Shown here: positions 63,513-64,000 of the stretch, in pieces
How positions within the stretch are numbered: the first letter of the stretch is position 1
Layout of the letters: each line of letters begins with the position of its first letter
Origin: Alphaproteobacteria bacterium
Lineage (GTDB): Bacteria > Pseudomonadota > Alphaproteobacteria > Micropepsales > Micropepsaceae
Reading direction: 5' to 3'
Length of the DNA stretch: 64,000 nt
Assembly: GCA_947475445.1 (NCBI GenBank)
Contig: CANJLC010000007.1
Coordinates: 1 to 64,000, forward strand
The notes under the pieces: generated by a model
Told to the model about the DNA's origin: nothing
Databases searched by the model: none
What the model saw: the letters and a program-made list of their open reading frames with translations, nothing else
Made by a program: the position numbers and the translations under genes

Positions 63513-63620
63513 CAGTGGGGATTTTGGGTCGTGACGCATTATGAATTTTGAGCCTATTAGCCAGAATCAAAGGGTTGGCCGGGGGGTGACAAAGCGCCCC
63601 TCCACTGGCACATTTCGCCC

Positions 63621-63863
63621 ATGCCTGACCGCTCAAGGAACCGCCCAAAAGATGCTAACCAGCTTGGGAAACTCATTGCCGCCCTCTCAGTTGGTGAAGT
63701 TGAGGATGTGGCAGACTCGGGCAAGAACCCCGCAGCCGTCGCCTTGGGAAGGCTTGGCGGCAAAAAAGGGGGCATCGCCCGGGCGAAGAGTCTTTCCGCC
63801 AGTAAGCGCAAGAAGATTGCTAAAGCCGCAGCAGCCGCGCGATGGTATAAACCTAAGAAATAG
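63621..63863 (+). CDS. Small basic KGG-motif protein
   Basis: Eighty residues, strongly basic: an N-terminal part (MPDRSRNRPKDANQLGKLIA) and a C-terminal block NPAAVALGRLGGKKGGIARAKSL, then SASKRKKIAKAAAAARW. The GGKKGG and the Ala/Lys repeats resemble small, uncharacterised bacterial proteins. DNA- or RNA-binding is a guess from composition. It lies 20 bases before the HslV-like gene on the same strand, and both could form an operon. The base composition from here to the edge is lower in GC than the rest of the window. Confidence 0.65.
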   Translation: MPDRSRNRPKDANQLGKLIAALSVGEVEDVADSGKNPAAVALGRLGGKKGGIARAKSLSASKRKKIAKAAAAARWYKPKK

Positions 63864-63882
63864 CGAATCGTGCTGGGGGCAA

Positions 63883-64000
63883 ATGACCGCCGAAGTCGCA
63901 GTTTTGAACAAACTTGGCGTCGCGCTGGCGGCGGACAGCACTGTTTCCATCGGTGATAAAACATATGATTCTGCAAACAAGCTGTTTGCATTATCAAAAC
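63883..64000 (+). CDS. HslV/proteasome-like N-terminal-threonine hydrolase, N-terminal part (partial)
   Basis: The gene runs off the window; 39 residues are visible. They begin MTAEVAVLNKLGVALAADS and continue TVSIGDKTYDSANKLFALSK. Placed against HslV (Met, then the nucleophilic Thr1, with Asp17 and Lys33), the Thr after Met would be Thr1, Asp falls exactly at position 17, and a Lys lies at 32. This suggests a self-compartmentalising protease-type N-terminal nucleophile hydrolase, distinct from canonical HslV in its other residues. The rest of the protein is needed to prove it. A GGGGG ribosome-binding site precedes the ATG. Confidence 0.55.
   Translation, partial: MTAEVAVLNKLGVALAADSTVSIGDKTYDSANKLFALSK

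What the first reader, a model, noticed from the sequence alone, without database searches (positions are those of the whole stretch)
63621..64000. HslV/proteasome-like hydrolase paired with a basic KGG protein at the window edge
The visible 39 residues of the last gene align without gaps to the N-terminus of HslV up to the Asp17 position: Met-Thr start, V4-V6 strand, Asp17, Gly23, and Lys at 32 near HslV Lys33. It is not HslV itself, because the surrounding residues differ and no hslU neighbour is seen. Twenty bases upstream is an 80-residue basic protein with GGKKGG. The pair sits in a lower-GC pocket after nrdJ, unlike the housekeeping region around it. A proteasome-fold enzyme in accessory DNA with a small basic partner could be an undescribed proteolytic or defence unit. 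Sequence shows the motif positions; the family idea is inference.
Basis: partly seen in the sequence, partly recalled or inferred. Interest (0 to 1): 0.68.

Follow-up and report, generated by a model that had tools for sequence, protein, structure and literature searches.

The report
Broken proteasome-like gene in transposon remnant
The two genes are the remains of a small jumping element that once carried a proteasome-shaped enzyme; related elements elsewhere carry toxin and anti-virus genes, while the enzyme gene here is cut short and very probably dead.

Summary
An 80-aa basic KGG gene and an HslV-like frame stand at 63621-64000, with Met-Thr, Asp18 and Lys33 present. The contig continues: the frame ends after 178 aa, while most relatives have 400-449 aa. 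Only positions 1-156 of the 431-position family model were found in this genome, so the C-terminal half of the fold is missing.

Both genes lie inside a 1330-bp insertion with terminal inverted repeats and a perfect 8-bp target duplication. The closest sister genome has the matching empty site.

KGG marks a group of IS1-family transposons with passenger genes: 21 of 35 other KGG loci have such an inverted-repeat pair, 18 with a perfect 8-bp duplication; control anchors 0 of 111. Passengers of other elements include HigB, HigA-IrrE, Panacea, GNAT, STAND and PD-Lambda-2-like proteins.

An intact relative is predicted to fold as a proteasome beta subunit (Z 16.7), and the family keeps Thr1, Asp17 and Lys33. 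A 40-85-aa frame follows directly in 99 of 110 loci (control 95 of 395). That gene, rather than KGG, is the usual partner.

The enzyme is probably group PMI-4 of a 2021 survey, without known function. Best reading: a decayed passenger-gene IS1 element with a dead copy of a candidate defence hydrolase.

The parts
63519..63526 (.). left copy of the 8-bp target-site duplication GGATTTTG; right copy at contig positions 64857-64864, beyond the window
   Evidence: identical 8-mers outside the inverted repeats; empty site in sister genome G009
63527..63545 (+). left terminal inverted repeat GGTCGTGACGCATTATGAA; right arm at contig 64838-64856
   Evidence: pair I1, 84% complementary; only these two places in the genome within 2 mismatches; similar repeats at other KGG loci
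63527..64000 (.). visible part of the 1330-bp transposon-like insert, contig 63527-64856; GC 0.53; no transposase found in it
63621..63863 (+). KGG gene, 80 aa basic protein, frame intact; conserved gene of a group of IS1-family transposons
63883..64000 (+). first 39 codons of the truncated proteasome-like gene; the frame runs to contig 64419 (178 aa); homology ends near 64338

Best explanation
The feature is a 1330-bp remnant of an IS1-family transposon with passenger genes, without a transposase. It inserted on one side of nrdJ and duplicated 8 bp of target (shown). It keeps both inverted repeats and the KGG gene. Compared with intact relatives it lacks the transposase, the C-terminal half of the proteasome-like gene and the small gene that follows that gene elsewhere (shown by comparison). 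An HTH frame with a stop codon just upstream fills the right side and looks like a second remnant. In relatives (L049, L067, L082, L115) the order is inverted repeat, KGG, hydrolase, small frame, IS1-type transposase, inverted repeat. The intact passenger is predicted to fold as an N-terminal-threonine hydrolase of the proteasome class: after removal of Met1, Thr2 would be the nucleophile, with the conserved Asp and Lys (inferred from fold and conservation). I infer that hydrolase plus small protein work as a host-defence or toxin-antitoxin-like pair, the small protein holding, guiding or feeding the enzyme, because related transposons carry known systems of that kind and because the pair also sits in prophages and phage satellites. 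I infer that KGG serves the transposon, for example as a DNA-binding or expression-control protein. The confidence given is for the transposon-remnant reading; the defence step I put at about 0.45.
For: Inverted repeats and target duplication. Empty site in G009: the two outer flanks with one duplication copy align to it in one piece (score 81; best of 500 shuffles 43), and each flank does so on its own (0 of 500 shuffles). In 3 of 16 sister nrdJ loci the gene that lies beyond the insert here is directly next to nrdJ. Truncation: against 167 of 190 loci with frames of 400-449 aa (redundant, and including 3 overlapping loci of the own copy). Similar repeats around KGG elsewhere: 21 of 35 loci with a pair, 18 with a perfect 8-bp duplication, all 21 containing the transposase; control 0 of 111. 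Transposase is Pfam DDE_Tnp_IS1 above cut-off (one tested, L049). 27 of 29 genomes with the transposase also have KGG (draws of 385 and 372 genomes). KGG-hydrolase-transposase order in L049, L067, L082, L115, L284. Passengers. Fold. Catalytic residues: Thr 112 of 114 (Ser in 2), Asp 114 of 114, Lys 114 of 114. Small downstream frame 99 of 110 against 95 of 395 controls.
Against: The defence role rests on association; nothing was tested. Neighbours of 42 chromosomal homologues are mixed, with no family in more than 2 of 126 proteins; some match PADLOC models, but no control was run. The hydrolase itself matches no PADLOC model beyond one weak hit. The window element lacks the transposase, and its left repeat differs from the group consensus at 4 of 17 scored positions. 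14 of the 35 other KGG loci gave no repeat pair, five of them no repeat at all. One KGG-hydrolase locus, L037, shows neither repeats nor transposase. At sisters G014, G017 and G001 the flanks do not align above shuffle level (scores 31-33), so they show gene adjacency only.
Confidence: 0.9

Rival explanations
1. A working short proteasome-like enzyme with KGG as its dedicated partner.
For: The N-terminal residues Thr2, Asp18 and Lys33 are intact; the KGG frame is intact; KGG overlaps the hydrolase start by 4 or 11 bp in L037, L049, L067, L082, L115 and by 11 bp in L193.
Against: The frame ends at 178 aa and lacks the second half of the fold with its conserved C-terminal strands. KGG precedes the gene in only 5 of 182 non-own loci. 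Of 29 other KGG loci read, only L193 has the hydrolase directly behind (L214 is cut off 22 bp after KGG and cannot be judged).
Confidence: 0.03
2. The intact family (not this copy) is a phage or satellite accessory gene with another proteolytic role, and transposon carriage is incidental.
For: 121 relatives in viral contigs; 13 phage records, 7 of them Streptococcus satellites; one copy in a Porphyromonas phage record lies in the head-tail region, after portal and adaptor and before the neck gene; chromosomal neighbours are mixed.
Against: Two other copies are the last or last-but-one gene of their element, behind a peptidoglycan hydrolase or at the end of a satellite; the IS1 elements that carry it elsewhere carry toxin-antitoxin and defence-type genes.
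Confidence: 0.35
3. The hydrolase acts in a bacterial ubiquitin-like conjugation pathway.
For: Multiubiquitin and ThiF genes lie within a few kilobases in L023, L025, L064, L107, L109.
Against: Only 5 of the 187 loci searched (L004-L190), in two different gene orders; such cassettes are said to carry their own deconjugation domain (recalled, not tested).
Confidence: 0.1

Closest known systems
PMI-4, proteasome homologue with multiple insertions (Fuchs, Alva, Lupas 2021, PMC8665760; text parts 1-4 of 6 and passages read)
   Same: Proteasome beta fold with a long insertion after H1/H2 and another between H3 and H4; wide distribution including phages and archaea; no known function.
   Different: The window copy keeps only positions 1-156 of 431. 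The survey reports no telling genomic context; here there are a small downstream gene and, for some copies, an IS1-type carrier.
HslV and the 20S proteasome beta subunit
   Same: Thr1, Asp17, Lys33 frame and overall fold (best Z 16.7 to yeast beta5).
   Different: Intact relatives have 400-450 aa (HslV and beta subunits are much shorter, recalled) with two helical insertions; no HslU-like frame was recognised by eye nearby; Pfam match below cut-off.
IS1-family insertion sequences (PF03400)
   Same: DDE_Tnp_IS1 transposase (in relatives), short inverted repeats beginning GGT, 8-bp target duplication.
   Different: Delimited elements are 2.2-4.0 kb with a KGG gene and passenger genes; the window copy has no transposase.
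PD-Lambda-2 and other toxin-antitoxin defence systems (PMC9519451, passages read)
   Same: HigB and HigA-peptidase genes of this type ride in KGG transposons.
   Different: No relation in sequence to the hydrolase was found.

Membership tests
Proteasome-like Ntn hydrolase family (intact relatives) | proteasome beta fold | tested here: met
   AlphaFold model of L115, pLDDT 93.9, pTM 0.89; the 12 Foldseek hits with E up to 0.001 are chains of 20S proteasomes or their precursor complexes, with low TM-scores (0.23-0.27 by query) because of the insertions; VIA second look Z 16.7 over 184 residues, rmsd 3.2
Proteasome-like Ntn hydrolase family (intact relatives) | Thr/Ser1, Asp17, Lys33 | tested here: met
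   112 Thr plus 2 Ser, 114 Asp, 114 Lys of 114 sequences; residue 2 of the model aligns with residue 1 of beta5
Proteasome-like Ntn hydrolase family (window copy) | complete fold | tested here: not met
   only positions 1-156 of 431 found in the genome
HslV | HslV-length subunit with hslU nearby | tested here: not met
   intact relatives are mostly 400-449 aa; no HslU-like frame recognised by eye
PMI-4 | insertions after H1/H2 and between H3/H4 | tested here: met
   helices 98-202 and 307-350 of the model against the text of PMC8665760; PMI-3 shares this feature
PMI-4 | falls in the PMI-4 sequence cluster | not testable with these tools
   the survey's sequences are not held
AAH | compact subunit without insertions | tested here: not met
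   two long helical insertions; definition
IS1-family transposon (KGG group) | inverted repeats of the group and 8-bp duplication | tested here: met
   left repeat with 4 mismatches of 17
IS1-family transposon (KGG group) | own transposase | tested here: not met
   none in the window element, none in the genome at E up to 1e-40; hence called a remnant
Known anti-phage defence system | hydrolase matches a PADLOC model | tested here: not met
   6 of 7 full-length relatives without a hit at E up to 1; one with a weak DpdH hit at 0.0016

The most novel reading that the evidence does not exclude
A group of IS1-family transposons, marked by a conserved KGG gene, acts as a dedicated carrier of toxin-antitoxin and anti-phage genes, and one of its cargoes is an undescribed two-gene immune module: a proteasome-fold threonine hydrolase with a fast-evolving 40-85-aa partner that restrains or guides it.
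Probability: 0.35. Interest if true: 0.85.

Novelty: new variant of a known kind. Interest (0 to 1): 0.55.

Why it matters
The window copy itself is very probably dead, but it points to an enzyme family whose 2021 survey found no telling genomic context (PMC8665760). The survey here gives that family two testable handles: a small gene that follows it in nearly all loci examined, and a transposon group that otherwise carries toxin-antitoxin and defence-type genes. If the module is an immune system, it would be a proteasome-fold enzyme used against phages. The KGG gene would also be a simple marker for finding passenger genes of this kind.

Tried and rejected
KGG as dedicated partner: rejected. 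HslV and AAH: rejected by size and insertions. Remainder of the gene elsewhere in the genome: none found. Pfam, NCBIfam and PADLOC gave no clear name for the hydrolase. The PDB sequence search gave only a short C-terminal match to proteasome beta at E 0.018, among helical chains that rank as high or higher. The viral structure library gave one match at E under 0.001, a phage protein named proteasome beta type-2. Neighbour survey of chromosomal homologues: mixed, no enrichment claimed. The gene beyond the insert (a CxxCxxCC-type protein by eye; Pfam PF03692 only at E 0.75) has too many paralogues to serve alone as a synteny marker, so nrdJ was used. Paper searches that did not show a description of KGG transposons or of a defence role for this hydrolase: (open-access library only, so the absence is weak). 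Seen of papers: PMC8665760 text parts 1-4 of 6 and passages; PMC9519451 passages; PMC7157771 search listing and start of abstract only. Recalled, from no call: HslV residue numbering and subunit lengths, that IS1 makes duplications of about this size, the deconjugation part of ubiquitin-like cassettes, that small genes beside toxins are often antitoxins.

Rows dropped before counts: searches left out the loci of this genome and the same-genus loci (L001-L022), short or incomplete frames (155 intact loci kept), near-identical proteins (to 114) and loci with little sequence downstream (to 110); their controls are other stop-to-stop frames of 300 or more codons in the same loci, not all of which need be genes. 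One search skipped 2 duplicate own loci and 5 loci cut close upstream; its 182 non-own loci include redundant viral contigs and 18 same-genus loci. One search's control loci are flanks of hydrolase genes, not random genome. Searches were given 45 of the 65 listed element frames, plus one transposase; 20 were left out by eye: 4 hydrolases, the rest likely spurious. In one search the three nearest frames of each of 42 loci with enough flank were used.

Full report
What is there. The window is contig C7:1-64000 of a 2.17-Mb genome, and the contig is 123,500 bases long, so the sequence beyond the edge could be read. The KGG gene is 63621-63863. The HslV-like frame starts at 63883 and ends after 178 codons at contig 64419. 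Pfam Proteasome matches residues 5-41 weakly (E 0.0093, below cut-off); phrog_5990, a 427-position phage family of unknown function, matches residues 1-104 at 3.8e-34.

The gene is a fragment. Relatives found in genomes, viral contigs, plasmids and phages mostly have frames of 400-449 aa (167 of 190 loci; redundant, and including three overlapping loci of the own copy). A profile of 79 full-length relatives finds one place in the genome, covering positions 1-156 of 431. The model of an intact relative (L115, 419 aa, pLDDT 93.9, pTM 0.89) shows what is missing: the second half, with the strands from residue 211 onward. The catalytic residues Thr2, Asp18 and Lys33 are in the kept part, but the fold is not complete.

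The intact family. The VIA second look at Foldseek's matches gives Z 16.7 to yeast proteasome beta5 over 184 residues at 3.2 A, with residue 2 on Thr1. The 12 Foldseek hits with E up to 0.001 are chains of 20S proteasomes or their precursor complexes; their whole-chain TM-scores are low (0.23-0.27 by query length), as the two insertions are not in proteasome subunits. In 114 non-redundant sequences the residue after the start is Thr in 112 and Ser in 2, and the Asp and Lys are invariant. Two helical insertions (98-202 and 307-350) match the description of PMI-3 and PMI-4 in PMC8665760; PMI-4 is the larger group and includes phages and Euryarchaeota, as here (for example a Methanosaeta contig). 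Clustering with that group could not be tested.

The usual partner. In 110 non-redundant intact loci with enough sequence, a 40-85-aa frame begins between 36 bp before and 35 bp after the stop in 99, against 95 of 395 other long frames in the same loci (Fisher P 2e-37). With wider limits it is 110 of 110 against 253 of 397. Across 25 related pairs, changes fall most often on third codon positions (391, 294, 624), as in a translated gene under selection; the pairs are not independent, since several reuse near-identical loci. The frames are very diverse; many seem to share an aromatic-proline stretch and a helix-like C-terminal stretch (by eye). In the window no such gene follows the fragment.

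The insertion. Inverted repeats of 19 bp (84% complementary) stand at contig 63527-63545 and 64838-64856 and nowhere else in the genome within 2 mismatches of the pattern. They are flanked by the same 8 bp, GGATTTTG. In the closest sister found (G009, nrdJ 88% identical) the sequence before nrdJ has no insert: the outer flanks with one copy of the duplication align to it in one piece (score 81; best of 500 shuffles 43), and each flank alone does so better than all 500 shuffles. In G009 the gene upstream is an acyltransferase-like frame (by eye). In G014, G017 and G001, 3 of 16 sister nrdJ loci, the CxxCxxCC-type gene that lies beyond the insert here stands directly next to nrdJ; their intergenic sequence does not align above shuffle level. 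The 1330-bp element has GC 0.53. It holds KGG, the fragment, and on the other strand an HTH frame with a stop codon just upstream, which looks like a second remnant; its best Pfam match, HTH_3, is below cut-off.

What KGG is. A search of 385 genomes of the class with KGG gave 33 genomes and 35 places outside this one. All 35 were fetched with flanks. 21 have an inverted-repeat pair of the form GGTAGTGnnnCAGTTTGAAA (up to 4 mismatches in 17), 18 of them with a perfect 8-bp duplication, one with an imperfect one and two without; all 21 contain an IS1-type transposase match. The other 14 gave no pair: six show the left repeat only and three the right one only, several of them at contig ends, and five (L313, L315-L318) show none. 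The same procedure at arbitrary anchors in 111 other loci found no pair and no duplication. The L049 transposase is PF03400 DDE_Tnp_IS1 above cut-off. A search for it found 29 of 372 genomes at E up to 1e-40, and 27 of these are among the KGG genomes. KGG is thus best read as a gene of the transposon. The hydrolase follows it directly in 1 of 29 other loci read (one of them cut off), and it precedes the hydrolase in 5 of 182 non-own hydrolase loci.

What such elements carry. Elements with the hydrolase are L049, L067, L082, L115 and L284 (L049, L067 and L284 with a perfect duplication). L049 also carries an FRG-domain protein and L284 a GNAT protein. Other elements carry HigB, HigA-IrrE, SocA/Panacea, Bro-N and STAND-type ATPase proteins. 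In a further set of 36 frames, one of them the window's HTH frame, there are HTH_3 (8), IrrE peptidase (6), DUF6941 (2), and one each of P63C, Panacea, HigB, RusA, ParE-like and others. PADLOC names PD-Lambda-2_B in 5 of 36 and RmrA models in up to 4 of 36. PD-Lambda-2 is described as an anti-phage toxin-antitoxin-like system (PMC9519451, passages). Part of the cargo has no named family.

Against the defence reading. Neighbours of 42 chromosomal hydrolase loci are mixed: no Pfam family occurs in more than 2 of 126 proteins, and housekeeping families are among them. Some neighbours match defence models, but no control was run, so nothing is claimed. No PADLOC model fits the hydrolase itself beyond one weak DpdH hit. 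A copy in a Porphyromonas phage record lies among head and tail genes.

Mechanism. Shown: the insertion, its anatomy, the truncation, the recurring small frame and the cargo pattern. Predicted: the fold of intact relatives, with conserved catalytic residues. Inferred: threonine-nucleophile hydrolysis after Met removal; that the small protein controls or guides the enzyme; that the pair serves host defence or addiction; that KGG assists or regulates the transposon. I put the transposon-remnant reading of the window at 0.9, a defence or addiction role of the intact pair at about 0.45, and the joint claim with a dedicated carrier at about 0.35.

Noticed in passing
L023 (8001-13174), L025 (4733-9437), L064 (2881-7317), L107 (6001-11181), L109 (2812-7380): The intact proteasome-like gene lies beside multiubiquitin and ThiF-type conjugation genes, in two different gene orders.
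   Followed up: partly
L005-L022, genomes of the same genus: Another branch of the family (411-418 aa) is common in the genus and was not found in this genome; in those printed, a frame of 131-155 aa follows it.
   Followed up: no
nrdJ of G005, G007, G010, G020, G023, G024, G075: The nrdJ match splits at residues 268-270 and the open frame is 1146-1205 aa in most of these (902 and 286 aa on two contigs in G005), as an intein would give.
   Followed up: no
L284-L318: KGG proteins come in at least two types, one beginning near PRDPNQLAK and one near PKGPKGEKRPADVI, both in IS1-type elements.
   Followed up: partly
L289 and L291: KGG loci with the right-hand repeat only and the transposase upstream on the opposite strand, a different layout.
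   Followed up: no
L290, L292, L293, L300, L304: A cargo protein of about 250-310 aa recurs in five elements (similar beginnings, read by eye); Pfam gave no family for the L290 copy.
   Followed up: partly
contig 64882-65442 and paralogues: The CxxCxxCC-type protein (label by eye) beyond the insertion has many paralogues in sister genomes, 8 matches in G009 and 9 in G025.
   Followed up: no
L026, Streptococcus satellite phage Javan103: Hydrolase and a small downstream gene are the last two genes at one end of the satellite record.
   Followed up: no
L298: This KGG element of another genome has the same 8-bp target duplication sequence, read on one strand, as the window's insert (CAAAATCC); possibly chance, possibly a target preference.
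   Followed up: no
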